Below are positions 13,558 to 50,480 of a stretch of DNA of 64,000 nt, one piece after another. Every line of letters begins with the position of its first letter. Position 1 is the first letter of the stretch. Under the pieces are notes generated by a model. That model was not told the DNA's origin. It saw nothing but the letters and a program-made list of their open reading frames with translations, and did not search any database. The translations under genes and the position numbers were made by a program. This DNA is from Lathyrus oleraceus (taxonomy: Eukaryota > Streptophyta > Magnoliopsida > Fabales > Fabaceae): NCBI RefSeq assembly GCF_024323335.1, contig NC_066585.1, forward strand, positions 181,554,294 to 181,618,293. The letters are read 5' to 3'.

Positions 13558-13660
13558 CTGAAACAGTTATAGCCCCTAGCGCAATTGTTCTCCCAAGCCA
13601 ATGAGAGAACCTAAGCTAACCTAATAACGATCTAAGCTTCTCCAAGCAAGATCTTCAAGG

Positions 13661-14154: not shown

Positions 14155-14254
14155 TTTAATGAACAATTAATTTGAAATTGACGTTGTTTTGCATCAACAT
14201 AACTCTTGCGCAGTCACAAAAACAGAAAACCCCGAGAATTCTGACTCTGTGAAT

Positions 14255-14950: not shown

Positions 14951-14964
14951 TGGCTCTGATACCA
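14951..14964 (-). promoter_or_regulatory. Copia-A primer binding site (initiator tRNA-Met)
   Basis: On the minus strand TGGTATCAGAGCCA lies one base inside the 5' LTR. It is the standard complement of the 3' end of plant initiator tRNA-Met, where minus-strand DNA synthesis is primed. Confidence 0.92.
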
Positions 14965-14965
14965 C

Positions 14966-18658: not shown

Positions 18659-19474
18659 TTAGAAATTTCAATAATCTCCTGATGTCGTAAATGTTGCAAA
18701 AAACTGAAATCCAATTTTGCCAATTCTTTCAGAGAATCAAACCATTTATTTGTGCCATATAAATGACCATAGTAGAAATTTCTTGAAGTGAACATTGGCA
18801 AAGTTTTGTGAAAAGGATATTCTAAGGTTTTCCTTACAAACATAGCTTCACGATTATCAAGTTGTGCCACTTTTTCTTTTAGAATCTTCATACTAAATTC
18901 TTTAGCTCCATCAAGTATATCTTCCTCTGCCATGCTCAAATGTGAGGCTTCAAACAAATCTATCATTCCTTTGATATTTTCACCTAACTTTGGGTCGAAC
19001 TTTTCCTCCTTATTTTTGAACTTGTTAAACACCTCTGTAATGTTAATTTCCAATAACAGATCTATTATTCTCTCACTGTTCATTATAAAAAAGTGACTAA
19101 TTGTGTAAAAACTAACCTGAAGGAACAAAGTGACCTCGTTGTCTTAATAGTCTGAAGCGAAGTGCAATTTCGTGAAGATCATGATGATGACACACATATT
19201 CTCTTGTCAGGAATGCTTCAATTTCTTCTTGAAAGTGGTAATCAATATTTAGGCGTTGCATGACATCAATCATGTGCAATCCTTTCAATGAGCTTTCACC
19301 AACATTCTTAAATTCATGCTTAACCACCTCAAGTTTGTCAGAACTGCTGATACCTATGAGTGTGTTGCGTCTTTTTAGTTTAACAGTGTCAATGTTCCAC
19401 TTGGGAAGTTGTGAATTTGTTGGGATGATTTGTAGTTTCAAAGAAGATAGACAAGACTTAAAATGCATTGACAT
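18659..19474 (-). pseudogene. Terpene synthase, 5' exons only (TPS-b/g-like)
   Basis: Terpene synthases cyclise or ionise prenyl diphosphates. The minus strand encodes the N-terminal alpha-barrel domain: SQLPKWNID, then GLHMIDVMQRLNIDYHFQEE, HEIALRFRLLRQRGHFVPS. After an 82-bp GT-AG intron (19035-19116) it continues EVFNKFKNKEEKFDPKLGE, FEASHLSMAEEDILDGA, KELAKLDFSFLQHL. The exon ends at 18659 before GTATGT. Both exons are free of stops, and the 19474 ATG suits a cytosolic protein without a long transit peptide. The paired arginines lack the RR(x)8W spacing, which points to the TPS-g type; that is inference. The catalytic C-terminal exons are absent from the window. They may lie left of position 1, beyond the LINE, or be lost. 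Copia-B lies about 370 bp upstream. Confidence 0.8.
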
Positions 19475-23100: not shown

Positions 23101-23241
23101 GTCGTCGGCAAATTTGACTTTACTTTTTGCCGCTTGATTGATTTGCACAAACCAATCTTTTCGACCCGTCATATGTGTTAAACAACCGGAATCCAAGTAC
23201 CACTCATCTCTCCCTTGGACTCCATCACAAACGGTAACCAA
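20123..23241 (-). pseudogene. Copia-B pol: protease, integrase, reverse transcriptase, RNase H
   Basis: On the minus strand: protease with WYLDSGCLTHMTG near 23200; integrase zinc region (WLWHYRLGHLNFRDL) from 22951; integrase core with TDGGGEYTSSEFGKF and NGAAERKNRT (22465-21881); reverse transcriptase 21781-20417 (WVYKV-type start, LNGPLVEEVYV, catalytic YVDDLL near 21078); RNase H (YTDSNWCGDKDDRKS, SCEAEYIAA, ADLLTK) ending at 20123. Breaks: a frameshift at about 22950, TAA after VKAK at 22676, TGA after YGGN near 22565, TAG after LLTEK at 21881, and TGA after ACQAM at 20414, where TGG is expected. All the stops are explained by transitions. Confidence 0.88.
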
Positions 23242-23247
23242 TGCACT

Positions 23248-24330
23248 TCAATCCGAATGCGTTTTCTCGCTATTTTCCGGAACGGTACAGCTGCTGTCCT
23301 GCAAACTGTCACTACTGTAGTTGCTGCCCGGAACATCCGTAATGCCATAACTCTCCTCCGTGATCATTACTAGAAGTGTGTCCTCATAATCTACCTCTTC
23401 CTTAGCAACCTTGGCTTCATTATTGTGATTCTCATTCGATTTACCACGACACAAATTTGCAAAGTGTCCAAACTTTCTACACTTGTAGCATTGCACCTTA
23501 CTCATATCACGCTTCTTAAAATCATTGCTATGACCACTATCCTTGGAGCTAATTTCACCCTTTTCACTCGTTGAATGCTTTGAATTTTGCGAATCGTTTG
23601 AACCAAAATTCTGAAAATTTGATTTACCTCTCGCCGCAAATTTTCCTTTCGACCTCTTATTCTTTTCGTTGAAACGCGCTTGCAAAGCAATCTCCGCTTT
23701 GGCTTGGTTCGTGCCTCTCTCATCCATCCTTTGTTCATGTGCCTCTAACGAACTTTGCAATTCATCCTTGCTCAAAGTTGTTAGATCCTTTGATTCTTCA
23801 ATAGCCACAACTATGTTGTCGAAACGCGACGTTAACGAACGCAATACTTTCGATACAACATTCTGCTCAAGAATCGTTTCCCCACAAGATTTGATTTGAT
23901 TAACTAACCGGGTAATGCGCGTAATGTAGTCGTTGATCATTTCTTTGTCTTCCATTTGTGTTAACTCGAACTGTCGCTTGTAAGTTTGTAACCTTACAAC
24001 CTTCGCTTTGACGGCACATGCATATGCTTTCTCCAAGATTTCCCATGCTTGCTTCGCCGATTCACAATCGCCAACCTTCTCAAAATTGTCGTTATCAACA
24101 CACGAATGAATCAATAATAGGGCTTTGTAATCCTTCTTCTTCTCTTCTTTGTGTGTAGCTCTTTGAATGTCGGTGGCCTCTGCCCCTAATTGTGTAACTC
24201 CATTGCCGACGATCTCAAGCACCTCTTGATAACCAAACAAGACCTTCATTTGTTTCGCCCATTTATCATAGTTCTTCGAATCAAGAATCGGGAGATTGGT
24301 GGGAATTCGATCATTGGAAACGGTTGCCAT
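23248..24330 (-). pseudogene. Copia-B gag
   Basis: A 360-codon open frame from MATVSNDRIPTNLPILDSKN. It has a UBN2/gag-type core (NYDKWAKQMKVLFGYQEVLE; KAWEILEKAY-type region; LRSLTSRFDNIVVAIEES) and one CCHC knuckle, CYKCRKFGHFANLC. It ends at an in-frame TGA (HSD-stop-SALVTVCDG) directly before the protease, consistent with a CGA to TGA change in what was one polyprotein. The gag frame itself is intact. Confidence 0.85.
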
Positions 24331-30058: not shown

Positions 30059-31893
30059 TGTAACGGTAAATTCATGACCATCAAGCTATGGGTAAGTTTG
30101 ATGTCAATAAAACCAGAGTCACCACCGCGTTTTTATTGTTTCCAAAGGAAAAGGGAAAAGTACGAACAAAACCCAAAGATAAGAAGTTTTCAAATCAAAA
30201 CTAATAAAATGTCAGAGATTACAGGTAAGGGGGTTGGTTACAAAGAGGGAAGGTGTTAGCACTCAAAGTGTCTTAGGTACTCATAGGGATCCCTTGTTTA
30301 TGTGTGTATGTGTTTTTGGTATAAAAGATGTTTGCAATAAAATAGAGTGTGAGAATGAGAAAAGAATTCATTAATTATATTTTTGTATTTGAAAAGACCT
30401 TCGGACTTCTGCCTACGTACCAACATAAAAATGAGGGATCAAAACCTCATAGTTCGTGGTATCAATTTCAAAATGAGTGAATTGCTTTTAACAAAATTTA
30501 AGTTTAAGAGAGGCACAAAGGGCCTAAAAGCTTGAATGGGTGTTAGTTCTTTTTGTCTGTTGAAATTTTAAGTCAATATGATTAAATTCATTTACAAGTT
30601 TGATTAAGAAAAGAGTTTGAAATTTCAATGGCATAAGGCCAAAGTTTCTAATTTTGTAATAGAGTCTAAGTTTAGCAATCACAAGCAAAGAAGTTTTTGA
30701 AAAGGGGGGAGAGATTTGAAATTTAAGAAGTGGGAGGAGATGAAGAGACTAATCCTAAGAAAATATTTAAAAGTTAAGAGTTGAAAAGATCTGACCAAGG
30801 ATGCAATCCAATAGACAAGAATGTCATATAGAAACCCATTTTCCCTTTGGACTTTAAATTAAGCAACATCAATAAGCAAGTAGCAATATGAAGAGCAAGG
30901 CATCAAATAAAGATAGCCACATCCAAGCAGGAAACTTCACAGCCAAAAGTCTTCTTTGTCTTCCCATGTATCAGATGACATACTCCTTGATTTAGCTCAA
31001 AATAAGGCATTAGACACAGGTTCAAAGTAAGAGTTATATCAAGACCATGTAGCAGATGAACTCAAGTGGATCTTAATACTTGCATCAGATGGAGGCTCAA
31101 ATCACAATAACTTGGTCTCAGAAATGTTGTCATTGGCCAAGTCCTTTTGCATAGGGAATGTTGCCTAATTCTAAGTCCAAATCCCAGATCAAATCCAACA
31201 GTCCGCACAAATATTTTTTAGGGTTTTTGTTGTTTATTAAGTATTTTAAGGTCCTAAGACCACAAACACAAACAAATATATACAATCACAATATATGGCT
31301 CAAGTGAGCAAAGTGAAAATGACATAAACATAAACAAGTTAAATGATATGTAAAATGACAAATGAAATGGTAAACGGCTTGAATTTAAATGGCATAAAGT
31401 AAATGACTAAAAAAATAAAAGCAATAAGAATAAAAGTTAGTCAAATGTTAGTTGATTAGATGTTAGTGGTGTTTTGCTTTTCAATTGTTTAAGTCATTCT
31501 TTGGAGAACACTCACCCCTTTATTCACAAGCATGGATCCTTGAACCAGGCATCTTTCAAAGGAAGGGAAAAAATGCCAAGTTTCCACACAATACCATGAA
31601 AGGGGGGAGACTTAAAATCTCACTTACTAGAATGTTATGCATTTGGATAAAAAAGCAACAAACTAGTCATCTCACTTACTAGAATGTTATGCATTTGGAT
31701 AAAAAAGCAACAAACTAGTCATCTCACTTACTAGAATGTTGAGCATGTACACTACCTACAAAAGCAACAAACTATACATTGACATATTTTTGGCATTTTG
31801 GTTAGTAGATAATGAAAAACAAAGTATGATACAATCAAAATGTGCTTGGTGATCTCTCCTAATGCAAACCCAATGAATGAGGGGTAAGGAAGA
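30059..31893 (-). mobile_element. Ogre/Tat-like 3' LTR (copy 2), first part
   Basis: LTR end portion, homologous to 1304-2716 and 5634-5790 of copy 1. An internal section of about 2.9 kb is missing at 31740. The LTR is interrupted at 31893 by the Tekay-like element and ends with 40002-40079. After removal of that element the LTR is about 1.9 kb. It keeps about 170 bp (30175-30345) that copy 1 lost. Confidence 0.8.
31617..31740. repeat. 52-bp direct repeat at an LTR deletion junction
   Basis: Units at 31617-31668 and 31669-31720 are identical, and a third partial unit (31721-31740) runs into GAGCATGTAC. Each unit joins LTR sequence ending TTTGGATAAAAA to AGCAACAAACTA. The latter normally lies 20 bp beyond the deletion, at about 31760. 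Confidence 0.92.
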
Positions 31894-33955
31894 TGTAACA
31901 CCCCGATAAAAATAAGATAATTATTTAAATTAAGTTAATAATATGTTTATTAATTTAATTTAATAATTTGAAATAATATTATTGGACTATTATTTTATTA
32001 TTGGAATATAAGTGTTGGAATCACTAAAAAGGTCCCATTTAGTAAAAAGGGTTATTTTTCACGTGAAAAGGAAAAAGAGACAGAAAGGGCAAAAAGGCAG
32101 AGCAAGAGAAAGAAGGTTGAAGAAAGGGAAAAGCTCGAAGCTTAAGATTCGTCGGATTAACTCAGGTAAGGGGGGTTTATCGTCGTTTAATGGGTATTAT
32201 GGGATAACATGTAATGGGTAGTGATAAACCATGGATTTGACTCTGATTAGGATGATGCAGGATGAAATTGTGAAAGTTTGGATGAATGAGATATGAATAT
32301 GATTGAGGAAATTCGTAAGAATTAGATGGAAAAATGTTAGAATTTGTGAAATTGAATAGGATATGATTCGTGTTAGATGATATGAACGATTTCTGTGTAA
32401 AAATTGGACTGTGGAAGGTTAGATCTGAGAATCTCGTAGCAGAGAAAACCCATTGCAGATCTGAAATTTTGGTTCTGGTCATACACGTATGGCACTAGGC
32501 AATACGCGTATGAGATGGCTTGGAAGGGAGGGGATTTGCGTTGATACGCGCCATACGCCGTCATTACGCGTATTCTGTGGTTGGTACGCGTATGGGGTGA
32601 GGCCACACGCGTATGGATGAAGAAGATGATGTTTTTAACGTAAATTTGTCTCTGTTGGTACGCGTATGAGGAAGTAGTACGCGTAGCATACGCGTATGAG
32701 ATGGGCAATACGCGTATGGGCTTGGCCAGGAAATGGGCCATACGCGTATGGACATGGGGCATACGCGTATGGGCAGAATTTTGGTTTTTCCTGAGCTGTT
32801 GTTGTGCAGTTTTGGTCGTTTCAGATGAGTGATGTAGTTTAGCTGATGTAGGATATGGTGGGGATCATTTCCCGTTGTTTTGAGCAGTATAGGTGTTAGT
32901 AGAGTGTGCTAATACTGTGATTGATTGTGTGGTATGACATGATATGATTATGTGATAAACATGCTGATGATGTATGATTGTATGTATAATGCTGTGAATG
33001 TATCTGTTATGTATGCAATTGTAAATGGACTGTTTATGGCTTAGAGTGTGAGCATATGTCTATTTTGAATTGTTGTTGATGTTTGCATGCTAGGTGATTT
33101 AGCATGTATATTATGGCCTTCATGGTGGTAGCTAATTCCCATGGTGAGGAATTAGTGAGTGATGTCTTTGTGGATTGTTGTTGATGTTTGCATACTAGGT
33201 GATTAGCGTGCATATCATGGCCCTTGGGGTGGTAGCTAATTCCCGTGGTGAGGAATTAGTGAGTGAGTCACTAGGTCTCAAATGAATGGGACTAGTAGGA
33301 CTTGGTAGCCGTATCTGGATTTGATCGGTGAGGTGAACTATATGTTCACGAATAGTCGGTACCGCATGCATGGAGTCTCATTGCATAATGCATGTATGTA
33401 TGGCGTATAATATGAATGGATGTATTCCAATATTATACGTGTTGTTTTGTGTTGGTGTTGAGTATTATTATAATTATGAGTTGATGATTGCCGTTGCTGA
33501 ATGTGTGATCTGATTAGGGTGATGATATGTGTTAAATTACTTAGCATTACATGATGTTTTATAATGCTTATTATATCGATTGAGGAACTCACCCTTACAA
33601 CTATTTTTCAGGTAACGAGCAGTGATTGAGTAGAAGCTAGTCCTTGGAGTCTAGTGTAGTTCCTTAGTGGGTCATGCTCTGGTAGATGTAACATCGGGAC
33701 GGGATGTTTTACTTGTTTTTCATTAATGATTGTTGAACAAGTTTACATGTAATGTGTTACATGTTTTGCATTGTTGTTAGACTTTATCCGCTGCAAATTA
33801 TGCAAATGATTTATTTTAATTAAATAATTGAGCATGACAGGATATTTTGGAAAACGGTGTGAAGTGATTGTGTGACACCCTTAATTGCATATCTACTCTG
33901 ATAATTGTTTTGATGTTTTAATTAAATATTTGGGGTATTTTAGAAGGGTGTTACA
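31894..33955 (+). repeat. Tekay-like 5' LTR
   Basis: 2062 bp. It contains the ACGCGTA palindrome cluster (32480-32771) and an imperfect tandem duplication of about 104 bp around 33071-33270 (GGTAGCTAATTCCC block twice). Open frames on its minus strand are by-products of low-complexity repeats. Confidence 0.95.
32480..32771. promoter_or_regulatory. Cluster of CATACGCGTATG palindromes in the LTR
   Basis: Ten copies of ACGCGTA, most within the 12-bp palindrome CATACGCGTATG, lie in 292 bp of an otherwise CG-poor LTR. The 3' LTR (38521-38812) has eleven; the extra one reads CATACACGTATG here. ACGCGT matches the CGCG-box bound by plant CAMTA factors and the cell-cycle MCB core. Either role is inference. 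Confidence 0.75.
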
Positions 33956-33959
33956 TTAG

Positions 33960-33971
33960 TGGTATCAGAGC
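33960..33971 (+). promoter_or_regulatory. Tekay-like primer binding site (initiator tRNA-Met)
   Basis: TGGTATCAGAGC lies 4 bp inside the 5' LTR. Confidence 0.93.
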
Positions 33972-34080
33972 ATAGTCGGTCAAGTCAAGTCGTAATTATT
34001 CTGTTTCCCCTGTACGGGATAGGTGTTGTGTAACCCTATCAGTACTTATTGTTTTAGCTTGTTGGGCTTTCAGAATAGAG

Positions 34081-35474
34081 ATGGCTGGAAGAGGTAGAGA
34101 CGATGCTGTGATTGTTGAGGCTCTGGGTATGCTAGCTGGAGTACTTGGAGGGAACCCGAATGTTGTGGGAATGGGAGCTGCTCGTCAACTGAGTGAGTTC
34201 CAGAAAAACAATCCTCCAATGTTCAAGGGAGCGTACGATCCAGATGGTGCTCAGAAGTGGTTGAAGGAGATCGAGAGGATCTTCCGAGTGACTGAGTGTG
34301 CCGATAACCAGAAGGTCAGGTTCGGTACGCATATGCTGTCTGAGGAAGCAGATGATTGGTGGGTTGCTAACCGCACTGAGTTGGAAGCTGCCGGGAGTGC
34401 TGAGGTCACTTGGGCGGTGTTCAGAGAGAGATTTCTGAGGAAGTACCTTCCAGAGGAGGTCAGAGGAAGGAGAGAGATAGAATTCTTAGAATTGAAGCAA
34501 GGCAACCAGTCTGTCACTGAGTATGCTGCTAAGTTCACAGAGCTGTCGAAGTATTACACTCCCTATGATGAGGCTACTGGAGAACTTTCAAAATGCGTGA
34601 GGTTTGAGAATGGGTTACGTCCTGAGATCAAACAGGCTATTGGGTGTCAGCGGATTAGAGTGTTTTCTAATTTGGTCGACTGTTGCAGAATGTTTGAACA
34701 GGATACCAAGGCCAGAACAGAAAGCTATCAGCAGAGGATTGATAGGAAAGGCAAGAATCAGAATGATCGTGGGAAACCGTATGCAGCTGGCAAAGGTTTC
34801 CAGAGACAGAGTGGGATAAAGAGGCCTAGTGGGGGAGACTCTAATGCCCCTGCTAAGTGTTACAGATGTGGTCAGGCTGGACATCGTTTCTATGAGTGTA
34901 CCAGTAATGAGAAGAAGTGTTTCAAGTGTAGAAAAGGTGGTCACTTGGCTGCGGAGTGCCGGTTGAAGACTATGACTTGTTTCAACTGTGGAGAGGTGGG
35001 TCATATCAGTCCACAGTGTCCTGAACCGAAGAAAGAGAACCAGTCGGGAGGCAAGGTCTTCGCTCTATCGGGTTCTGAGACTTCTGCATATGATCGTTTG
35101 ATCCGAGGTACGTGTTATATTAATGGCTTTCCTCTTGTAGCTATTATTGACACAGGTGCGACTCATTCCTTTATATCTTTGGATTGTGCTGTGAACTTAA
35201 GTTAGAGATATCTGAGATGCATGGAAGTATGGTGATTGATACTCCTGCGAAGGGTTCAGTAACTACTTCTGTTTGTTTAAATTGTCCTTTGAGTATTTTT
35301 GGTAGAGACTTTGGGATGGACCTAGTGTGTCTTCCACTTGTGCAGATTGAGGTTATTCTGGGTATGAACTGGTTGGTGTTTAACCGAGTCTATATCAATT
35401 GTTTTGATAAAACTGTGATCTTCCTGAGATTGAGGAAGGAAAGAGTTTGTTCTATCAGCAAGGCAAGTGAATGA
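34081..35474 (+). pseudogene. Tekay-like gag and protease
   Basis: ATG at 34081 gives MAGRGRDDAVIVEALGMLAG. The gag core reads MFKGAYDPDGAQKWLKEIER, then EFLELKQGNQSVTEYAAKF. Three consecutive zinc knuckles follow (CYRCGQAGHRFYEC, CFKCRKGGHLAAEC, CFNCGEVGHISPQC). The aspartic protease has IIDTGATHSF with the catalytic DTGA, then a frameshift near 35185; the frame continues from 35190 (EISEMHGSMVIDTPAKGSV, VILGMNWLVFNRV) and breaks again at about 35465. Gag is intact over 374 codons, and the lesions start in protease. Confidence 0.9.
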
Positions 35475-37892
35475 GGCAGTAGCAGATGGGGCAGAGTTGT
35501 TTATGCTGTTAGCAACTTTGGAGGCTAAAGATAAACTGGTGATTTGCGATCTAGCCGTGGTGTGTGATTTTCCTGATGTGTTTCCTGAAGAAGTGAATGA
35601 ATTACCGCCAGAGTGTGAAGTTGAATTCTCGATTGATTTAGTACCTGGTACTAGGCCGGTGTCGATGGCTCCGTACCGTATGTCTGCTGTTGAGTTAACT
35701 GAATTGACGAGTCAGTTGGAAGATCTGTTGGATCAGAAATTTATTCGTCCGAGTGTGTCACCGAGGGATGCACCGGTGTTGTTGGTTAGAAAAAGTTAGT
35801 TTCCTTGGTTTGGCTGGTTATTCTAGGAAGTTCATTGAGGGATTTGCTAAGTTGGCGTTACCGTTGACGATGTTGGCTAGAAAGGGGCAAGCGTTCGTTT
35901 GGGACTCAAAATGTGAAGAAGGTTTCCAAGAGTTAAAGAGATGGTCAACTACTGCTCCTATTCTGATATTACCGAGTTCGTCGGAATCATTTGAGGTTAC
36001 AGTGATGCTTCATTGTTGGGTTTGGGTGGTGTGTTGATGCAGAATAAGCAGGTTATAGCTTATGCTTCGAGATAACTGAGGGTTCATGAGAGGAACTATC
36101 CGACACACGATTTAGAGTTGGCAGCTGTGGTATTTGTTCTGAAGTTATGGAGGCATTACTTGTACGGGTCAAGATTTGAAGTTTTCAGTGACCATAAAAG
36201 TTTAAAGTATTTGTTTGATCGGAAAGAGCCGAATATGAGACAGAGGAGATGGTTAGAGTTTCTGAAGGATTATGACTTTGGTTTGAATTACCATCCGGGT
36301 AAAGCAAACGTAGTGGCTGATGCATTGAGTCGGAAATCATTGCATATGTCTATGTTAATGGTTAAGGAATTGGATTTAATTGAGCAGTTTAGAGACTTGA
36401 GTTTGGTGTGTGAGAGTACTCACAATAGTGTTAAATTGGGAATGTTGAAGTTAACGAGTGGTGTTCTGGATGAGATTAGAAAGGGTCAGAAATCCGATGT
36501 GCTTTTGGTTGATAAGTTGACTCTAGTGAATCAAGATCAAGGTGGTGAATTCAGAGTTGATGAGAATGGTGTTTTGAAATTTGGTAATCGGGTGTGTATT
36601 CCGGATGTTACCGAACTTAAGAAGAGTATTCTTGAGGAAGGACATCGTAGTGGCCTGAGTATTCATCCTGGGGCTACGAAGATGTATCATGATTTGAAAA
36701 ATTTATTTTGGTGGCCGAGAATGAAAAGAGAAATTGCAAGTTTTGTTTATTCTTGTTTGACTTGTCAGAAGTCAAAGATTGAGCATCAGAAGCCATCTGG
36801 GCTAATGCAACCGTTGGCTATTCCAGAGTGGAAGTGGGATAGTATCAGTATGGATTTTGTTTCTGGTTTACTGAGGACAATTAAGAATTTTGAAGCTAAT
36901 TGGGTGATTGTCGGAAAATTGACCAAAATCGGCTCATTTCATTCCGATCAGAATGGATTATCCGTTAGAGAGATTAGCCGAGTTGTATATTGAGAAAATT
37001 GTAAGTTTGCATGGTATTCCGTCGAGTATTGTTTCGGACAGAGATCCTAGATTTACATCGAAGTTCTGGGAAGGTTTGCAGAGGGCTTTGGGAACTAAGC
37101 TGAGATTGAGTTCTGCATATCATCCGCAGACTGATGGTCAGACTGAGAGGACGATTCAGTCACTGGAGGATCTTTTGAGGGCTTGTGTTTTGGAAAAAGG
37201 GAGGTGCTTGGGATTGTTATTTACCTTTGATTGAGTTTACCTACAACAATAGTTTTCATTCGAGCATTGGTATGGCACCGTTTGAAGCTTTGTATGGTAG
37301 GAGATGTCGGACACCTTTATGTTGGTATGAGTCCGGTGAGAGTGTTGTGGTTGGACCTGAGATTGTTCAACAAACTACGGAAAAGATTAAGATGATTCAA
37401 GAGAAAATGAGAATTGCTCAGAGTCGTCAGAAGAGTTATCATGATAAGAGGGGGAAGTCACTTGAGTTTCAAGAGGGAGATCATGTGTTTCTTCGTGCTA
37501 CTCCGATAACTGGGGTTGGTCGAGCTTTGAAGTCGAAGAAGTTGACACCTCGATTTATTGGTCCTTATCAGATTTTGGAGAGGATAAGGGAGGTAGCCTA
37601 TCGTATCGCTTTACCGCCGTCAATTGCGAATTTGCATGAGGTTTTTCATGTGTCTCAGTTGAGGAGGTACATTCCTGATCCGTCGCATGTAGTCCAAGTA
37701 GATGATGTACAGGTGAGAGATAACCTGACTGTTGAAACATCACCTATGAGGATCGAGGATCGAGAGTTGAAGCAGTTGCGGGGTAAAGAGATTGCATTGG
37801 TAAAGGTAGCTTGGGGAGGACCAGCAGGTGGCAATGTGACTTGGGAACTTGAGAGTCAGATGAAGGAGTCTTGTCCGGAGCTATTTGCTTGA
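35467..37892 (+). pseudogene. Tekay-like pol: RT lost, RNase H, integrase, chromodomain
   Basis: 35467-35799 encodes the approach to reverse transcriptase (FPDVFPEEVNELPPECEVEF, RPVSMAPYRM, SPRDAPVLLVRK) and then jumps at about 35793 to VSFLGLAGYSRKFIEGF, the RT-RNase H connection. The whole RT palm with its catalytic aspartates is absent. RNase H follows (VFSDHKSLKYLF, ADALSRK), with one frameshift near 36000 and a TAA for a probable Gln at 36073. Integrase: zinc motif HPGATKMYHD...CLTCQKSK; core Asp in SISMDFV, Asp in VSDRDPRF, Glu in TDGQTERT; frameshifts at about 36950 and 37190. The tail (LHEVFHVSQLRRYIPDPSHV; ALVKVAWGGPAGGNVTWE) is a reduced chromodomain. Ends at 37892. Confidence 0.9.
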
Positions 37893-37922
37893 GGTATGTT
37901 TTCGAGGACGAAAACTCTTTTA

Positions 37923-37934
37923 GTGGGGGAGAGA
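37923..37934 (+). promoter_or_regulatory. Tekay-like polypurine tract
   Basis: GTGGGGGAGAGA directly precedes the 3' LTR and would prime plus-strand DNA synthesis. Confidence 0.88.
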
Positions 37935-39996
37935 TGTAACACCCCGATAAAAATAAGATAATTATTTAAATTAAGTTAATAATATGTTTATTAATTTAAT
38001 TTAATAATTTGAAATAATATTATTGGACTATTATTTTATTATTGGAATATAAGTGTTGGAATCAGTAAAAAGGTCCCATTTAGTAAAAAGGGTTATTTTT
38101 CACGTGAAAAGGAAAAAGAGACAGAAAGGGCAAAAAGGCAGAGCAAGAGAAAGAAGGTTGAAGAAGGGGAAAAGCTCGAAGCTTAAGATTCGTCGGATTA
38201 ACTCAGGTAAGGGGGGTTTATCGTCGTTTAATGGGTATTATGGGATAACATGTAATGGGTAGTGATAAACCATGGATTTGACTCTGATTAGGATGATGCA
38301 GGATGAAATTGTGAAAGTTTGGATGAATGAGATATGAATATGATTGAGGAAATTCGTAAGAATTAGATGGAAAAATGTTAGAATTTGTGAAATTGAATAG
38401 GATATGATTCGTGTTAGATGATATGAACGATTTCTGTGTAAAAATTGGACTGTGGAAGGTTAGATCTGAGAATCTCGTAGCAGAGAAAACCCATTGCAGA
38501 TCTGAAATTTTGGTTCTGGTCATACGCGTATGGCACTAGGCAATACGCGTATGAGATGGCTTGGAAGGGAGGGGATTTGCGTTGATACGCGCCATACGCC
38601 GTCATTACGCGTATTCTGTGGTTGGTACGCGTATGGGGTGAGGCCACACGCGTATGGATGAAGAAGATGATGTTTTTAACGTAAATTTGTCTCTGTTGGT
38701 ACGCGTATGAGGAAGTAGTACGCGTAGCATACGCGTATGAGATGGGCAATACGCGTATGGGCTTGGCCAGGAAATGGGCCATACGCGTATGGACATGGGG
38801 CATACGCGTATGGGCAGAATTTTGGTTTTTCCTGAGCTGTTGTTGTGCAGTTTTGGTCGTTTCAGATGAGTGATGTAGTTTAGCTGATGTAGGATATGGT
38901 GGGGATCATTTCCCGTTGTTTTGAGCAGTATAGGTGTTAGTAGAGTGTGCTAATACTGTGATTGATTGTGTGGTATGACATGATATGATTATGTGATAAA
39001 CATGCTGATGATGTATGATTGTATGTATAATGCTGTGAATGTATCTGTTATGTATGCAATTGTAAATGGACTGTTTATGGCTTAGAGTGTGAGCATATGT
39101 CTATTTTGAATTGTTGTTGATGTTTGCATGCTAGGTGATTTAGCATGTATATTATGGCCTTCATGGTGGTAGCTAATTCCCATGGTGAGGAATTAGTGAG
39201 TGATGTCTTTGTGGATTGTTGTTGATGTTTGCATACTAGGTGATTAGCGTGCATATCATGGCCCTTGGGGTGGTAGCTAATTCCCGTGGTGAGGAATTAG
39301 TGAGTGAGTCACTAGGTCTCAAATGAATGGGACTAGTAGGACTTGGTAGCCGTATCTGGATTTGATCGGTGAGGTGAACTATATGTTCACGAATAGTCGG
39401 TACCGCATGCATGGAGTCTCATTGCATAATGCATGTATGTATGGCGTATAATATGAATGGATGTATTCCAATATTATACGTGTTGTTTTGTGTTGGTGTT
39501 GGGTATTATTATAATTATGAGTTGATGATTGCCGTTGCTGAATGTGTGATCTGATTAGGGTGATGATATGTGTTAAATTACTTAGCATTACATGATGTTT
39601 TATAATGCTTATTATATCGATTGAGGAACTCACCCTTACAACTATTTTTCAGGTAACGAGCAGTGATTGAGTAGAAGCTAGTCCTTGGAGTCTAGTGTAG
39701 TTCCTTAGTGGGTCATGCTCTGGTAGATGTAACATCGGGACGGGATGTTTTACTTGTTTTTCATTAATGATTGTTGAACAAGTTTACATGTAATGTGTTA
39801 CATGTTTTGCATTGTTGTTAGACTTTATCCGCTGCAAATTATGCAAATGATTTATTTTAATTAAATAATTGAGCATGACAGGATATTTTGGAAAACGGTG
39901 TGAAGTGATTGTGTGACACCCTTAATTGCATATCTACTCTGATAATTGTTTTGATGTTTTAATTAAATATTTGGGGTATTTTAGAAGGGTGTTACA
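37935..39996 (+). repeat. Tekay-like 3' LTR
   Basis: 2062 bp, the same length as the 5' LTR, with about four substitutions seen between them (for example AATCACT/AATCAGT and TGAGTATT/TGGGTATT). It is followed by GAAGA. Confidence 0.95.
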
Positions 39997-40001
39997 GAAG
40001 A

Positions 40002-40079
40002 TGCCAAGGTGTGATCCTAATGCTAATGCATATGATGAGATAGCATGAGGGATCTTTGGGTCAAAATTGGGGTCTTATA
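40002..40079 (-). mobile_element. Ogre 3' LTR (copy 2), terminal part beyond the Tekay insert
   Basis: First bases of the minus-strand LTR (start at 40079, CTATAAGACCCC context), restored to 31893 when the Tekay-like element and one GAAGA are removed. It matches copy 1 at 5790-5866. Confidence 0.85.
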
Positions 40080-42999
40080 GCTGCCCCTATTTAAGGATGT
40101 TCTAGCTGAGGAGATGAAGGTTAAAATCTTCGTATCGACTCAGTAGAATGGACTTAAATAACAACATATAGAAACAAATTTTGGTCCCTAAGAGACCTCA
40201 TGATGCATATGATATGAAATGTTAAAAATAATCTTTGTGGGAAAGATGTTGCCACAAAGGAAAAGAATCTAGAGACTCTGAAAGTCCACAGGAGCATAAT
40301 GCATTCCATAAGGAAAACTCACTGGGAAGACGGAGACTCTGGGGATAAAAAGTTGTCCGTAGGCCAGGCTACAACTTAAAAACTGCTGGAGACACAAGAG
40401 AATTCCATGAAAATAAATCAATGGAAGGACTCGGTTGGGGATAAAGGAGAAAATCTGCAGGGGAAACGGATAACTAAGAACAAAACTGAAATACTCGAAC
40501 CAAACTCAATTGAGGAAGAATGAACTTCAACACAGGAGTATCAGAATTACATCATCTATTACCGGTTACTGGGTAGGAAGATAATGTATTTTGACAGAGA
40601 GGCATCCGTTACCGGTTAGGGTAAACATATCAAGGATGACTCGCTGAAGAAAAATAAGGTGTGTTCGTTACCGGTCACTGGGTAGGGAACAACCTGCTGT
40701 GGAAAAGTCAAATAGGATTTACAACTACCGGTTACTGGGCAGAAGACCGCAAAGAAAGAGAATATCCATCACTGGTTAAAGTGAACATAGCAAGGATAAA
40801 CTCAAAGGGAAGAATATTCGTCATCGGCTAATATGAACATATCAAGGATAGATTGCCGAGGAAAAGTAGGAATTAGATCTATCATTTACTGGATAGAATA
40901 CCGAAAAGACAATATTTGTCATCGGTTAAGATGAACATATCAAGGATAGACTCAAAGGGGAGAAATATGAATTATATCTATCAATTACTGGATAGAATAC
41001 CAAAAATAGAATATCCATCACCGGTTAGGATGAACATATCAAGGATAGACTCAACAGGAGAAAACAGGATTTACAACTACCGGTTACTGGGTAGAAGTCC
41101 GCAAAGAGGAGGAAACTCGTCATCGATTAGGATGAACATATCAAGGATTAACCCTCTGGGAAATGAAATAAGGATTACGACTACCTTTTACTGGGTAGAA
41201 AACCAAAAAGGGGAGAATATATGTCATCGGTTAAGATGAACATATCAAGGATAAACTACCTGGGAAAACGCAAAACAAATCCGCTGGGGAAAAACAAGAG
41301 GAAGTAGATTACTATTACCCGATATTGGGTAAGAGAAAGGTACTCGTAAATCGAGAAGAATATTACCAGTTATTGGGTAATAGACTCTCAGGGGACCAAA
41401 AATATCTATTTAGGTAAGAGATAGAAAGAAATGGTCAATCAAAGACTCGACCCGATGAAGATATAACTCAAAGGGAGTGGTTCCATCCAGATAATCAACT
41501 AGGGAGGAAGCTGAAATAATAAGCATCCACAAGGAAATAACTTAGTGGGGAAATGAGAAAGGTTAAATTCTTTCTACTTAAGGGGTTGACACTCTACTAT
41601 TGAGGGAGGACAGATGCACCAAATCTGCACGGGGAAATGATATCACCATAGTAGAGGATCAGAAAATAAGGAATAAAATGAAATAACAATGCATAATGAA
41701 ACGTTATATGAATGTATATGTATATGTATATGTATATAATTGATGATTATGCTGACAAAACAATCACAAAGGATACAAATGTCATAGATCTGAATCATCG
41801 CTACAACACTCGGCTAATCTCGATAGGATGGAGGCACCAACTAGAGAAAAACTAGGGATAAACATAAATCATCTGCCTCAATATAGCTCGACCCTGACTA
41901 GGGAATGAGAGAAGATCTGCTGAGGATCTGCATCATCAACTCTGCCGGGAATTTTAGGTCAACACCATATCAAAATGGGGGACAACCTTGTAAAAGACCA
42001 AAAATATTGCTCAAGAATCAGTGATGACAGGGATCAGAAATGAACTCTGATGGCGACTTAAGGGGAAACAAAACCTTGCGCTGAGATCTATGCAAACCGT
42101 TGAGAATACGTGCTTACAACTCAGCTGGGGAGGTGATCATAAAACTCAGTTGGGAAAACTAAATTGCTGGACCAAATGCTTGGAAAAAACCAACAATGTT
42201 TTTCACTTCTAAGACTTAAATGTTCTCAGACTGCTGTTGATGTTCCTTATTGAAATCGATTGCTCTTTTAAAGTAATTGCCTTTATTTATTTTAAGAAAA
42301 ATGATTTTGATTTCTATTGATTTTAAAATTATCATCATAAAAATTTAATTCTATTTAGCTTAAAGATAAATAAGAGTAGAAACAATTGGATAAAAAGCTC
42401 AACTTTATTTAATAGAATGGTAGTCTATAAATGACAAGACTCCATAGATCTTTACAAAAGTTGAAAAATGGTAATTTACATGGAAAAGGGCTACGTTGAA
42501 GACAATGATCACTAATCCTTCTACCATCTTTGATATCCACTGTGCTCTTGGCTTCGGTTGAGAATGACGAATCAGAACCAAATGACTTGCTCAAGAATGT
42601 CTTCAATACTAAAGATCAACTGAATGTAGTTACTTGCCATAATCCCTAACTTTTGAATAAATTTCCCCAAGTTGGGGTACTCAATCTATCGGGATAATTT
42701 TTTTTTGTTTTATGTCTCTAACTTTTGCATGGATAGCCCTTTCGGGTTTTCAATCCATAGAGACGCTCATTTTTGCCTAAGCCGCCCTTTCGGGTTTTCA
42801 ACTTAGCAAGACGTTTTTTTTCTTTTTTAGGCGAAGTATTTCTTGACTGCATCGGCATTCACAGGACGAGTGAACTCTTCACCATCCATAGTTGTAAGAA
42901 TCAAAGTTCCTCCCAAAAAGGATCTCTTAACAACATATGTGCCTTCATAATTAGGAGTCCATTTGCCCCTAGAATCTAGTTTGGAAGATAAAATCTTCT
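40080..42999 (-). mobile_element. Ogre 3' internal non-coding region (copy 2)
   Basis: Lies between pol and the 3' LTR on the minus strand. It contains the polypurine AGGGGCAG next to 40079, the tandem repeat array at 40545-41260, a (TATATG)n stretch near 41711-41736 and, near 42810, the end of the integrase reading with paired AAACCCGAAAGGG modules. No independent gene is seen. Confidence 0.7.
40545..41260. repeat. Ogre 3' UTR tandem repeats (copy 2)
   Basis: The same two modules and about 100-bp period as at 6325-7036, with AACATATCAAGGATA near 40834, 40933, 41035, 41137 and 41238. A plus-strand (antisense) frame is again open over 40916-41239. Confidence 0.8.
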
Positions 43000-45748
43000 T
43001 GAGCACAAGGTCACCTTATCTAAACACACGAGGCCTAACCTTCTTATCAAAATATTTCTTCATTCTCTGCTGATATAACTGACCACGACACATGGCAGTC
43101 AACCTTTTCTCTTCAATTAAATTAAGTTGATCATACCTGGTCTGACACCATTTAGCTTCAGTCAACTTGGCTTCCATCAAGACACGCAATGATGGGATCT
43201 CAACCTCTACAAGGAGCACAACTTCCATGCCATAAACAAGTTAGAAAGGGGTTCCCCTTATTGAAGTGCTGATGGATGTATGATACACGTGCAAAGAAAA
43301 TGGGAGCATCTCATGCCAATCCTTATACGTCACAACCATCTTCTGAATGATCTTCTTAATTTTCTTGTTTGCAGCTTCAACAACCCCATTCATCTTAGGT
43401 CTGTAGAGAGAAGAGTTATGATGTGCAAACTTGAAATCTTTACAAAGAGCTTCAACCATATTATTGTTCAAGTTAGATCCATTATCAGTAATGATCTTAC
43501 TTGGCACACCATACTGGCATATAATCTTATTCTTGATAAACCTTACATCAACTTGCTTAGTTACATTCGCATACGATGCCGCCTCAACCCACTTTGTGAA
43601 GTAATAAATAGCCACCATAATGAAACGGTGTCCATTCGAAGCTTTGGGCTCAATCATGCCAATCATATCAATTCCCCACATGGAGAAGGGCCATGGAGAG
43701 GAAATGACATTCAACAGTGTCGGAGGAACATGAATCTTATTTGCATAAATTTGTGGCATTTCTTCACAAACTTGCAACAGTAAAATTCCATTGTCAGCCA
43801 ATAGTAACATGCTCTCAACATCTTCTTAGCCATAACATGTCCATTAGAATGAGTACCAAAGGAACCTTCATGGACTTCAATCATCAACATGTTTGCTTCG
43901 TGTCTATCCATGCATCTAAGCAAAACCATATCAAAATTTCTCTTATGAAGCACATCACCATTCAGGTAGAAGTTTCCAGCTAATCTTCTCAAAGTCTTCT
44001 TATCTTTCAAAGATGCCCCAGGTGGGTAAACCTAACTTTGGAGGAAACTCTTGATGTCAAAATACCATGGCTTTTCATCCTTGATCTCTTCAACAACAAA
44101 TACGTGAGTTGGCCTATCAAGATACATCACAATCAAATTAGGAACTTAATTCCAAAATGTTACCATAATCATTGAAGTCAACGTTGCAAGAGCATCTACC
44201 ATCCGGTTTTCATCTTGAGGGATATGATGAAATTCAACCTTTGTAAATAAAGTTGAAATCCTCCTCGCATAATCTCTATATGGTATCAAACCGGGTTAAT
44301 TCGTCTCCCGTTCACCTTTGATCTGATTCACAACCAAAGTTGAATCTCCATAGACGTCAAGATACTTGATTCTGAGATCAATGGCGTCTTCAAGACCCAT
44401 AATGCAAGCTTCATACTCGGCCATGTTGTTTGTACACTTTAAAGTTAATCTAGCTGTAAACGGAAAATGTGTGCCTTGAGGAGTAATAATCACTGCCCCA
44501 ATGCCATTACCATATTAATTAACAACTCTATTAAATACCATGCCCCAACGGGAACCAGGTTCTGGCCCTTCTTCAAGCAATGGTTCATCACAATCTTTCA
44601 TTTTCAAGTACAAGATCTTTTCATCAGCAAAATCATACTGCACTGACTGATAATCTTCAATCGGTTGGTGAGCCAAGTGGTCAGCCAAGACACTACCTTT
44701 AATTTATTTTTGAGATCGGTATTCAATATCATACTCGGATAACAACATCTGTCAACGAGCAATCCTCCCAGTTAAAGCAGGATTCTCATAAATATACTTA
44801 ATTGGATCCATTTTGGATATCAACCAAGTAGTATGATTCAACATATATTGGCGCAGATGCTTAGCAGCCCAAGCCAATGCGCAACAAGTCTTTTCTAACA
44901 TAGAATAACGAGTCTCGCAGTCGGTGAACTTCTTACTGAGGTAGTAAATATCATATTCTTTCTTTCCAGTTTCGTCTTGGTGTCCTAGAACACAACCCAT
45001 ACTTTCATCAAGCACAATCAAATACATGATCAGAGGTCTTCTTTCAACAGGCGGAGATAGAATCAGAGGCTCAAGCAGATACTCTTTGATACTGTCAAAA
45101 GCTTTCTGGCAATCCTGGTCCAATCACAAGACTGATCTTTCAGAAAAATCTTGAATATAGGCGCACATGTGGCAGTCATATGCGATATAAATCTTGAGAT
45201 ATAATTCAAGCGGCCAAGAAAACCTCTGACTTACTTCTCAGTTTTTGGCGCAGGCATCTCTTGTATTTCTTTTACCTTGGCAGGATCAACTTCAATACCC
45301 TTCTCGTTGACAATAAAGCCCAACAACATACCCGAACGAACACCAAAAGTACACTTATTGGGATTCAAGCAGAGTTTGTACTTCCTCAAACGCTGGAATA
45401 ACTTCAAGAAATGCTCAACATGCTCTTCTTCATCTCTTGATTTGGCAATCATATCATCAACATAGACTTCAATCTCTTTATGCATCATATCATGAAAAAG
45501 AGTGGTCATGGCTCTCTAGTATGTTGCACCAACATTCTTTAAACCGAAAGGCATCACTCTATAACAGAATGTTCCCCAGGGTGTAATGAATATGATCTTC
45601 TCCATATCTCCGGGTGCCATTTTAATCTGATTATAACCGGAAAATGCGTCGATAAACGAAAAGACTTTGAATTTGGTTGTATTGTCTACCAATATATCAA
45701 TGTGTGGCAGAGGGAAATCATCTTTCGGACTAGCTTTGTTCAAATCTC
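43000..45748 (-). pseudogene. Ogre/Tat-like pol: RT (3' part), RNase H, second RNase H, integrase
   Basis: On the minus strand: reverse transcriptase from 45748 (YRDLNKASPKDDFPLPHIDI, SGYNQIKMAPGD, VMPFGLKN, then YVDDMIAKS near 45460) and RT-RNase H to 44752 (ILSPPVERRPLIMYL, LEKTCCALAWAAKHLR). A second RNase H of the type that marks Tat/Ogre elements lies at 44493-44296 (NMAEYEACIMGLEDA, YGDSTLVVNQI). Integrase zinc region 44010-43711; core 43810-43241 with Asp in WGIDMIG, Asp in ITDNGSN and Glu in NGVVEAANK; tail to 43016. In-frame stops at 45513 and 45230 fit CAG or CAA changes; one near 44750 fits TGG. Everything upstream of RT is missing. Confidence 0.88.
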
Positions 45749-48700
45749 TGTAAGACCCCAATTTTGACCCTAAGATGCCTCATGTTATCTCAACATATGC
45801 ATTAGCATTGGGATCGTAACTTGGCATCCTCTTTACCCCTAATTCATTGGGTTTGCATTGGGAGAGATCACCAAGAACTTTTGATTGTATCATACTTTGT
45901 TTTCCTTTATTTTACTAACCAAAATACCAAAAATATGTCAATGTATAGTTTAACTCTTTTGTAGGTAGTGTGTATGCTGACTTATGCTTTATCAAACTTA
46001 TATCTAGGGTTTGAGACCCTAAATGCAAGGATCTAAATCAAAAAATGGTTTACATTGGCTCTAAGTATCATATATGGATCCCCATGATCTCCACATGTTA
46101 TTTTTATCAATAAATCATCAAGAGTTTGGAGTTGGTTTGCCATGGAAACCCTAATTCATTTGGGTATCTTGTGTGACTTCTTCAACAAGTTTCTTCAACA
46201 AGTGATCAAATATTTCAAGGGATAGCTCATATTACATCATCTTATGCATATATGATCCTCCATGAGTCCCAAAAGTCAAGATAATGTCAAGCTAGCAAGT
46301 TGGTTCATGGTGGTTGACCAGGGAAAGTCAACTGGTCAAAACTGGGGTTCCCTAGACCCTGTCTCCTACGATTTTGTGTCATATTAAATTGATTCCAAGA
46401 TAAAATTTACTCCAAATTACATTACAAACAACTTTAATGTTGAGGTCAAGAGCTAGTTTTTCTTGTAAAGTCATGTTTTATGGTGAAAGATTATAGGTCA
46501 TTTTGTCTGAACCCTAGTTTGGAGGCCAACTTCCCAAGGCCATAACTTGCTCCATTTTCATGATATGAAAGCCATTAAAATTGCATGATCAAATTCAAGA
46601 TGTATACTTCAACTTTTATGTTTGTAGGAAGTGCAAATTCAACTTACAAGTTCTTATGCCAAGAGGAAACATTATAGGTCATTTTGGACCAATACCATTG
46701 AACAAGTGATTTTCCTCAACTTTTAAAATTCATAACTCCTTCATGCCAAATCCAAATGAGGTCAAATTTGTGACCAAATTTAAGAGGTTTTAAATAGATA
46801 CAAGTTTTATGAAGGAAATTTTCTCAGTTGAAGTCCATAGAAAAAGTTATTCAAGGTGGAAGAAGTGAACATTTGAGTTGGGACTTAGAAAATTTTCAAA
46901 TATGTTTGATTTCCCAAACTTCCACCTCAAAATTCATCATGATCCAAGCTTCAAATACAAAAGTGTTCAATATTAAAGTTGTTCCCCTTGATCTTAATTT
47001 TCCAAAAAGTCCAAGACTATCTCGTTTGGATCAAAATTGAGGGACTTGCGCATGGCTTCATTATGGTAAGTATTTTGGCAACATTGGAATTCAAATGATC
47101 AAACTCTTTTGCATGCTTCCAAATGATGAATTCAGTACACTTTGCACACGAATTGGAATTGGATTGTATCATTCCTAAGGCCCAAATCATTGCTCATGCA
47201 CCCATTCAAAGAAGTTTCTAAATTTGGCTAAATTTCAAGTGGTGCAAATATCAAATGCATTGCCTATTTAAACAAGCTCAAGGCTTCAGAATCAGAAATG
47301 CCCAAGCTTTGCTAGACTGATTCAAACCCCCACTGCCATAGAATTTCTGAAGGTTTCTCTTGAAATCGAGCTTGAACTTCATCTTCTGTTTGGAAGTTCA
47401 AACTCCAGAAGTTCACTTCCCTTTTCATCTCAATTGGCTTTTGCAAGCAAGAGGCAGAGGAAGCAATCAAATCCAAATCAAGATCAAATGGAATTAGATC
47501 AACTTGAAGGTGATTTTTCATAAATTTCATCTCTTAGATACTCTCTTAATTCTTCATCATTCTTGTTGATTTTTTGTTGTCTGAAGTTCTATCAATGTGG
47601 GAAAGAATATTGAGTTGCTTTGAGGTCAAATCGAAGCAACTCAGTTCATGATCCTCAAAATTCAAATCCCTGTATCTTTTCATATACTTGGAATTGGACG
47701 AAATTGAGGCCAGATTTGAGCTCCTATGCATTTTTTCTCTAAATTCATGTCTTGCTTTTTTATTTTGGTGATGGTTGATGGTTGACCAGTCCGGTGAGGT
47801 CCACCGAAGAAGAAGACCGGAGCCATGGCTCCGATGATGTGTTGTCATGCATCTCATCCATAGGATCCATTTGAATTGTTTTAATCTTAGGCGTTGCTTT
47901 TGATTACCACGTGTGTGAGACAGTTGGCTGAAGCGCATGTAGAATGCGCGTTTCCATCCATCTAATCTGCCACATCAATTAATGAGGGAGATCAGATGAC
48001 TCCCCTTTTTTTGAATTTCTGATTATTTCATTTACTTGCTTATTTTTAATTAATTCATAGTAATTTCATTATTAATCCAAAAAATATGGGACTTTCACCA
48101 AATATTTTCAAATATTTTCCTCTTTCATTTTCTGAATTAAAATTATTTTTTGGATTAGTTTTGATATTTTTAATGATTTAATTCTTTTTGTGTGTATTTT
48201 TAATTGTTTAAAAATACTTCTGACTTTTTAAAAATTATGAAAAAATTTGTCCAAGGTCCTTTGACCATTTTTGACCTATGATAAATCTCTTGGCCATTTA
48301 TTTGGTGTTTTGAAGAGGTTTTAGGTTTTTGATCAAACATAATTTAGATGCATTTTAATTTGATTTTCAATTGTTTAATTGTGTAGAAATTATGTTGAGC
48401 CATTTTTATTGACTTGTGAAGTTTGACTATGTGTTTGGGTCTTGGTCAAGGTTGATTTGACTTTTGTTGAATTAAAATCATTGGATTTAGGGTATTGATG
48501 AAATATACATTTCATCTCCCAAAATAAATGAATGATTTTAATTTGATAAAATTCCTCCCATGACCAATTTGTGTTTGTCTCATTTCCCCTCCCTCTTCAT
48601 CTTCAATCCCATTCTATCCCATCCCCCTCATTGACCAATGAAGTCTCAATATTCTAAGGCTAATTGGTTCATCAATAACTTTATGTTAGATGAACCAATA

Positions 48701-50480
48701 TAAGTATGGATGAGATTAGATCCATCTTTTGATCATTTTCTTTTTGTGTGTGTGGTATGTTTTTGGAGTATGGCTCAATATACCATATCTCTAACATACA
48801 TTAACACTAAAGTTGTTATTTCCCGGCCTCAGATAGTTGTGACTTCTACATAAGTACAATTACAATTGCTTAACATGGCGCTAAATTTTGACCCAAAAGC
48901 ATAGCATTCTAGTAAGTGAGATTGTAAGTCTCCCCCCTTTCATTGTATTATATGGAAACTTGGCCTTTTTTCCTTCCTTTGGAAGATGTCTTGGTTCAAA
49001 GATCCATGTTTGTGAATAGAGGGTTAAGTGTTCTCCAAAGAATTTCTTAAACAATTAAAAAGCAAAACTTCACTAACCTCTAATCAACTAACAATTTGAC
49101 TAAGTTTTTAATTTCAAGCCATTTACCTTATGCACTTTAAATTCAAGTCATTTACCATTTCATTTGCCATTTTACATATCATTTAACTTGTTTATGTTTA
49201 TGTCATTTTCACTTTGCTCACTTGAGCCATATATTGTGATTGTATATATTTGCTTATGTACCTTGTTTGTATTTGTGTTTATGGTCTTAGGACCTTAAAA
49301 TACTTAATAAACAACAAAAAAAACCCTAAATATGTTTGTGTGGACTGTTGGATTTGATACGAGCTTTGGATTTAGAATTAGGCAACATTCCCTATGCAAA
49401 AGGACTTGGCCAATGCCAACATTTCTGAAATCAAGTCATTATGAATTGATCTTTCATCTGATGCAAGTATTGAGATCCACATGAGTTCATCTGCTACATG
49501 GTCTTGATGCAAGTGTTACTTTGAACCTGTGTCTGATGCCTTATTTTGAGTCATTCAAGGAGTATGTCATCTGATACATGGGAAGATTTAAGACTATGAA
49601 GTTGCTAGCTTGGATGTGGCTATCTTTATTTGATGCCTTGCTCTTTCATCTTGCTACTTGTTTATTGATATTGCTTGATTTAAATTCCAAAGGGAAAAGT
49701 GGGTTTCTATATGACATTTTTGTCTATTGGATTACATCCCATCGGTCAGATCTTTTCAACTCTCAACTTTTAAATTTTTTCTTAGGATTAGTCTCTTCAT
49801 CTCCTCCCATTTCTTAAATTTCAAATCTATCCCACTTTTTAAAATCTTCTTTTCTTGTGATTTCTGAACTTAGACTTTTATTGCAAAATAGAAACTTTGA
49901 CCTTATGACATTGCATTTTCAAACTCTTTTCGTAAATCAAACTTGTAAGTGAATCTAACCATATTGACTTAAAATTTCAAAAGATAAAAAGAACTAACAC
50001 TCATTCAAACCCTTTTAGGCCTTTTGTGCCTCTTTTAAATTTAAACTTTTGTTAAAATCAACTCACCCACATTGAAATTGATACCACGAAGTACGAGGTT
50101 TTGATCCCTTAGTTTTATGTTGGTACGTAGGCACAAGTCCAAAGGTCTTGTAAAAAAAATATAATTAATGAATTCTTTTCTCATCCCCATACTCTATTTA
50201 TATCAAATATCATTTTATACCAAAAACACATACACACATAAAAAAGGGCTCCCTAGGAGTACCTAGGACACCTTGGGTGCTAACACTTTCCCTCTGTGTA
50301 ACCAACCCCCTTACTTGTAATCTCAGGCATTTTATTAGTTTTGATTTGAAAACTTCTTATCTTTGGGTTTTGTTCGTACTTTTCCATTTTCCTTTGGAAA
50401 CAATAAAAGCGCGGTGGCGACTCTGGTTTTATTAATGTTAAGTTTATCCATGGCTTAATGATCATGAATTTACCGCTACA
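45749..50480 (+). repeat. Ogre-like LTR, left
   Basis: Starts inside the reverse transcriptase of the minus Ogre, where the two sequences share TGTA. It ends TTTACCGCTACA. The section around 47050-47280 differs from the right LTR. Its minus strand has a 130-codon open frame (47546-47938), also partly seen in copy 1 at 3877-4062; it is antisense and probably not a gene. Confidence 0.82.

What the first reader, a model, noticed from the sequence alone, without database searches (positions are those of the whole stretch)
31894..39996. Very young Tekay-like element that lacks its reverse transcriptase core
The two 2062-bp LTRs differ at about four sites (about 0.2%) and the GAAGA duplication is perfect, so insertion is recent. 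Yet the coding region has lost the whole RT palm (jump at about 35793) and carries at least five frameshifts and a TAA. At LTR-level divergence only a handful of changes are expected in 4 kb, mostly substitutions. The damage therefore probably existed in the template, and the copy was moved in trans by an intact relative. Gag, primer site, polypurine tract and LTRs, the parts needed in cis, are intact.
Basis: partly seen in the sequence, partly recalled or inferred. Interest (0 to 1): 0.75.

Follow-up and report, generated by a model that had tools for sequence, protein, structure and literature searches.

The report
Recombinant, reverse-transcriptase-less pea jumping gene
A recently inserted pea retrotransposon without a reverse transcriptase belongs to a group of copies that were already damaged before they jumped, and it looks stitched together from two lineages of one large family, so it probably moved with enzymes borrowed from complete relatives.

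Summary
The element at 31894-39996 has two 2062-bp LTRs with 4 differences, a perfect GAAGA duplication (present once in a paralogous empty site in the window), open gag, a broken protease and no RT palm. The genome is pea.

The RT loss is two nested deletions. The first (about 448 bp) is at 85 other sites. Three more copies, this one included, carry it together with a second deletion (105 bp), each with a different target duplication. One of them, L032, also shares four small indels. Most of the damage is therefore older than the insertion.

New points: the 105-bp junction alone proves nothing, since four RT-bearing copies have it too. The element is a mosaic: of its nearest gag hits 26 of 39 lie beside an RT-less junction, of integrase-end hits 1 of 39, of U3 hits 0 of 38, and segment trees reject each other.

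Best reading: a member of an RT-less, non-autonomous subfamily of an abundant Tekay/Peabody-like family, copied in trans and reshuffled by template switching. A new member of a known kind.

The parts
31889..31893 (.). Left target duplication GAAGA
   Evidence: Sequence; empty-site paralogue at 5755-5814
31894..33955 (+). 5' LTR, 2062 bp
   Evidence: 99.8% identical to the 3' LTR, 4 substitutions
32270..32850 (+). U3 stretch whose nearest relatives lie in elements of RT-bearing size
   Evidence: 38 non-self hits, 14 LTR pairs spaced 6510-6665 bp, 0 of 38 beside a deletion-1 junction
33960..33971 (+). Primer binding site (TGGTATCAGAGC; tRNA-Met type, recalled)
   Evidence: Sequence right after the 5' LTR
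34081..35202 (+). Open frame: Gag, zinc knuckles, start of protease
   Evidence: 374 aa; Retrotrans_gag, zf-CCHC, RVP_2 start
35193..35471 (+). Protease remainder in another frame; holds four small indels shared with L032
   Evidence: RVP_2; indels near 35193, 35261, 35420, 35449; 351-base stretch matched at equal length only by L032
35434..35796 (+). Connector and N-terminal RT remnant
   Evidence: Frame; no Pfam hit; aligns with RT-bearing relatives
35782..35788 (+). Junction of deletion 1 (about 448 bp with the RT palm), at a TTGGTTA direct repeat
35798..35809 (+). Junction of deletion 2 (105 bp), at a 12-base near-identical direct repeat
   Evidence: also in four RT-bearing copies
35810..36990 (+). 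RNase H and integrase zinc-binding region, frames broken, stop at 36073
   Evidence: RT_RNaseH, Integrase_H2C2; stop private among readable copies
36923..37889 (+). Integrase core (weak) and C-terminal SH3 part; expected chromodomain region at the end
   Evidence: rve below cut-off, SH3_Tf2-1; 37300-37800 nearest to elements outside the RT-less set
37925..37934 (+). Polypurine tract
   Evidence: Sequence before the 3' LTR
37935..39996 (+). 3' LTR, 2062 bp
39997..40001 (.). Right target duplication GAAGA

Best explanation
One insertion of a non-autonomous, RT-less subfamily within a very abundant pea Ty3/gypsy chromovirus family (Tekay clade, probably Peabody). Shown: the RT deletions and four small indels are shared with independent insertions, so they existed before this one; the copy is a mosaic whose gag-to-RT part resembles RT-less copies while its integrase end and U3 resemble elements of RT-bearing size. 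Inferred: its RNA was packaged, reverse transcribed and integrated with enzymes of RT-bearing relatives. The enzyme jumped within one RNA at short direct repeats, which made the deletions, and between two co-packaged RNAs, which joined the RT-less part to another lineage's 3' half and U3. LTRs, primer site, polypurine tract and packaging signals must work in cis; its own Gag may contribute.
For: 85 other deletion-1 sites; all 20 fetched copies carry deletion 1, and 14 of these 20 have perfect, mutually different 5-bp duplications with LTR K 0.0021-0.0081. L032 shares five indels with the window. 38 private substitutions against about 4 expected since insertion. 11,749 RT-edge sites as possible helpers. 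Mosaic: site-compatibility test p<=0.001, segment trees mutually rejected, two unalignable U3 types among RT-less copies, nearest-hit counts 26/39, 18/39, 1/39 and 0/38, four elements in both U3 and integrase lists.
Against: No expression, particle or cDNA data. No helper was tested for function. RT-less and RT-bearing samples are partly separate, so exchange is not free. Three one-base indels and the stop are private and could be younger than the insertion. Pooled dN/dS of 0.36 and 0.29 for the two open frames among RT-less copies is not what a long-unselected lineage should show.
Confidence: 0.82

Rival explanations
1. Chromosomal gene conversion: lesions and U3 were copied between resident elements by ectopic conversion; no mixed particles are needed.
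For: The family has thousands of similar copies and forms tandem arrays, so ectopic pairing is plausible; mosaicism as such fits.
Against: Both LTRs of the window carry the same U3 with 4 differences and the insertion has its own duplication, so the U3 exchange came before or with the reverse transcription that made this copy. Conversion of one LTR alone would leave the pair unlike.
Confidence: 0.1
2. Ordinary decay: an intact element inserted about 75,000 years ago (recalled rate 1.3e-8) and its pol was broken in place.
For: Three one-base indels and the stop are private to the window among readable copies.
Against: Five of the eight internal indels are shared with L032, an independent insertion, and deletion 1 with 85 other sites. 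No indel in the LTRs.
Confidence: 0.04
3. RT loss happened many times independently at a fragile repeat, so copies sharing a junction are not related.
For: The 105-bp junction is also in four RT-bearing copies, and two close gag relatives have other deletions.
Against: Deletion-1 copies differ less from each other (2.4% and 3.0%) than from RT-bearing ones (5.9% and 7.1%), and L032 shares four further indels.
Confidence: 0.03
4. Assembly error or collapse of repeats.
For: The family has thousands of similar copies.
Against: Deletion 1 is assembled at 85 other sites on seven large and three small contigs, with target duplications and an empty-site paralogue in the window.
Confidence: 0.01

Closest known systems
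Peabody, pea Ty3/gypsy element of the Tekay/Del chromovirus clade (PMC2206039, PMC6317226; passages)
   Same: Host, length about 8 kb, copy number (11,000-16,000 reported; 11,749 RT-edge sites here), low variability reported for the family.
   Different: This copy and about 87 others lack the RT palm; sequence identity to the Peabody record (AF083074) was not tested.
Soybean autonomous/non-autonomous pair with LTR swapping (Du et al. 2010; paper not held, seen as a citation, otherwise recalled)
   Same: A defective internal region combined with the LTR of another, presumably competent, lineage.
   Different: Here the defect is a set of pol deletions at direct repeats in a chromovirus.
Onsen of Arabidopsis (PMC5668417; passages)
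   Same: Pairwise recombination between family members during reverse transcription, with breakpoints in LTRs and coding region.
   Different: Onsen recombination was observed in new insertions; here it is inferred from resident copies.
TR-GAG, LARD and other non-autonomous plant LTR elements (listings; definitions recalled)
   Same: Defective LTR elements that amplify with borrowed enzymes; TR-GAG also keeps gag.
   Different: RNase H and integrase sequence remain here; pol is only partly deleted.

Membership tests
LTR retrotransposon | Paired LTRs with TG..CA ends, target duplication, primer site, polypurine tract | tested here: met
Ty3/gypsy | Order gag, protease, RT, RNase H, integrase | tested here: met
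   Pfam order gag, RVP_2, RNase H, integrase; RNase H-integrase part matches the Ty3 Gag-Pol polyprotein in the PDB; RT itself is lost
Chromovirus, Tekay clade | Chromodomain after integrase | tested here: inconclusive
   C-terminal region present, no Pfam chromodomain hit at E<=1
Chromovirus, Tekay clade | Place in RT/RNase H/integrase tree | not tested
Peabody | Sequence identity to AF083074 | not testable with these tools
   Record not available; copy number and length agree
Non-autonomous mobile subfamily | Same defect in several independent insertions | tested here: met
   Deletion 1 at 85 other sites; 14 of 20 fetched copies with different perfect duplications
Non-autonomous mobile subfamily | Movement by proteins of another element | not testable with these tools
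   Inferred from absent RT and young LTRs
LTR-swap pair | Defective internal region with LTR nearest to RT-bearing elements | tested here: inconclusive
TR-GAG | gag only, no pol domains (definition recalled) | tested here: not met
   RNase H and integrase sequence remain

The most novel reading that the evidence does not exclude
RT-removing deletions behave like defective-interfering modules in a sexual-like retroelement population. One gag lineage is linked to at least three different pol deletions, and one deletion to two unrelated U3 types. Such modules persist by repeated template switching with an RT-bearing pool of thousands, and may gain from a shorter RNA while supplying their own Gag.
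Probability: 0.2. Interest if true: 0.6.

Novelty: new member of a known kind. Interest (0 to 1): 0.42.

Why it matters
It is a clean, dated case in which damage older than the insertion can be told from later decay, so a broken pol gene need not mean a dead element. A small RT-less set (about 88 sites) beside about 11,700 RT-edge sites in one genome makes borrowed-enzyme copying and template-switch recombination testable by counting mosaics. It also warns that a shared deletion junction at a direct repeat can arise, or be transferred, more than once.

Tried and rejected
Junction identity as sole proof of descent: rejected, because L054-L057 carry the 105-bp junction in copies that keep the later part of the RT palm. 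Reading eight odd hits as deletion copies: rejected; three of the eight were read and keep RT, the other five were judged by their letters only. Pfam did not show the chromodomain. The measurement of direct repeats worked for deletions 1 and 2; for the two deletions in L068/L070 and L069/L071 it gave 6 exact bases for one and did not find the other, so for them only the 9-base overlaps of the alignments are used. Phrase searches for a held paper on an RT-less pea Tekay/Peabody subfamily showed none by title or abstract start (listings of open-licence papers only, top rows only). Du et al. 2010 is not held. One search leaves out L034 (tandem twin of L033) but includes L038, L040, L043 and L047, whose large deletions are partly misaligned; this raises dN and their singleton numbers. 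Rows used: 13 of 21, 17 of 21, 15 of 21, 20 of 21.

Full report
What is there. The window lies at C7:181554294-181618293 of a 3.795-Gb assembly. It is pea: annotated Lathyrus oleraceus proteins sit on contigs whose lengths equal those of six of its large contigs. The element at 31894-39996 has LTRs of 2062 bp with 4 substitutions and no indel, GAAGA on both sides, a primer site, a polypurine tract, an open 374-aa frame with Gag and the start of protease, a protease broken near 35193, an RT N-terminal remnant, then RNase H and integrase in scattered frames. It sits in an older repeat; a paralogue of that repeat (5755-5814) shows the empty site with GAAGA once. LTR K is 0.0019, about 75,000 years at a recalled rate of 1.3e-8.

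The missing RT is two deletions. Compared with RT-bearing relatives (L051-L053), about 448 bp with the palm were removed between two TTGGTTA repeats, out of frame. A second loss of 105 bp lies between two 12-base repeats, with one mismatch in L037 and none in L041. Random breakpoints in one such sequence (L052) have an exact repeat of 7 bp or more in 0.1% of trials and of 5 bp or more in 1%.

A 40-base junction pattern has 93 hits with up to 3 mismatches and none in the reversed control. Eight are RT-bearing by their left half (by eye), leaving 85, or 72 loci after merging same-strand neighbours under 7 kb. All 20 have deletion 1. Fourteen of the 20 have perfect 5-bp duplications, all different from each other and from GAAGA; four (L033, L034, L039, L042) belong to tandem arrays, and two (L036, L046) lack a full outer LTR. 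The 14 LTR pairs have K 0.0021-0.0081.

The double-junction pattern has seven hits. The window, L031 (CAAAA) and L032 (GTAAG) also have deletion 1. The other four (L054-L057) keep the later part of the RT palm and have only the 105-bp loss, so that loss arose more than once or was moved by recombination. The window and L032 share indels near 35193, 35261, 35420 (also in L044) and 35449 (also in L047). Private to the window among readable copies are one-base changes near 35996, 36923 and 37194 and the stop at 36073. A search with 35150-35500 gives 39 other scored hits; only L032 (99%) has the window's length, the other 38 run 5-6 bases longer.

Timing. Four LTR differences over 4124 bp predict about 4 substitutions in 3979 internal bases since insertion. 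The window has 38 substitutions found in no other of the 20 rows counted, of which 26 are replacement, 1 stop and 8 silent in the two reading frames. Most private changes are therefore also older than the insertion, or arose during it. Pooled over RT-less copies, dN/dS is 0.36 in the first and 0.29 in the second open frame, so older variation arose under constraint. A recent loss of RT, or import of variants from functional elements, would explain this; continued selection on RT-less copies is not excluded. Five of 20 copies still have the first frame open at 574 aa up to the stop at the deletion-1 junction.

Mosaic structure. (a) Nearby sites are more compatible than distant ones: incompatibility 0.168 within 50 columns against a permuted mean of 0.367, p<=0.001; r2 falls from 0.32 to 0.12-0.14 (171 sites). 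(b) Trees from gag, lesion and integrase segments reject each other's topology (AU test); among the three, window+L032 is a pair (100%) only in the lesion segment, though it is also one in the whole alignment. (c) LTR positions about 300-1000 come in two unalignable types: the window shares one with L035, L036, L043, L044, L045 and L049, whereas L031 and L032 have the other. The U3 hits form 14 pairs spaced 6510-6665 bp, the size expected with RT present (6041 in the window plus about 553), and four elements are in both the U3 and integrase lists. (e) The two closest gag relatives (99%) carry neither junction. One joins protease to mid-RT, keeps the later palm and the 105-bp segment, and shares the window's loss near 35261. 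The other joins sequence near 35565 to RNase H near 36026. One gag lineage is thus tied to at least three different pol deletions; and a gag hit away from a deletion-1 junction is not necessarily RT-bearing.

Against free mixing. In two short segments RT-less copies differ by 2.4% and 3.0%, RT-bearing by 5.6% and 5.3%, and the groups from each other by 5.9% and 7.1%, with 6 and 5 shared polymorphisms and 2 and 1 fixed differences (15 RT-less rows, 8 and 5 RT-bearing pieces, three of the 8 chosen for an odd junction match). The RT-less set is partly separate.

Mechanism. RT is absent, so its activity must have come from elsewhere; 11,749 RT-edge sites are candidates, none tested for function. 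Deletions at direct repeats, and a U3 exchange present in both LTRs, fit strand transfer during reverse transcription. Such pairwise recombination has been shown for Onsen in Arabidopsis (PMC5668417, passages). Gene conversion on the chromosome is the main rival, less likely because the U3 exchange must precede or accompany this insertion.

Known kinds. Host, length and copy number agree with Peabody (PMC2206039, passages), listed under Tekay (PMC6317226, passages). Non-autonomous partners and LTR swapping are known in soybean (cited; paper not held). Hence a new member of a known kind, with clear evidence of damage before insertion and of recombination.

Noticed in passing
L033/L034 (C5:187.96-187.97 Mb), C3:475.77-475.79 Mb and others: Tandem LTR-internal-LTR-internal arrays: 9 groups among the 85 deletion-1 sites, mostly at 6.12-6.13 kb. 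The two-unit array L034/L033 has one duplication, CTGCG, at its outer ends. The list shows RT-bearing sites at about 6.5-6.6 kb spacing too.
   Followed up: partly
window 33056-33266 and 39097-39307: A tandem duplication of about 105 bp (88% identical) inside each LTR.
   Followed up: no
L054-L057 (C2:458.48, C5:580.64, C5:73.73, C5:248.60 Mb): RT-bearing copies with the same 105-bp loss as the window: a recurrent or transferred deletion.
   Followed up: yes
L051-L053: Three RT-bearing copies share one frame break at the end of the RT palm, another hint of lesions older than the insertions.
   Followed up: no
window 5635-7033, 39997-41247, 45748-50480, 52361-58248: Several copies, in both orientations, of the older repeat that the element entered.
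   Followed up: partly
window 9744-12973 and 20417-24330, - strand: Ty1/copia-like coding remnants (open frames, recognised from memory).
   Followed up: no
window 18646-19474, - strand: Open frames that look like pieces of a terpene synthase gene (recognised from memory).
   Followed up: no
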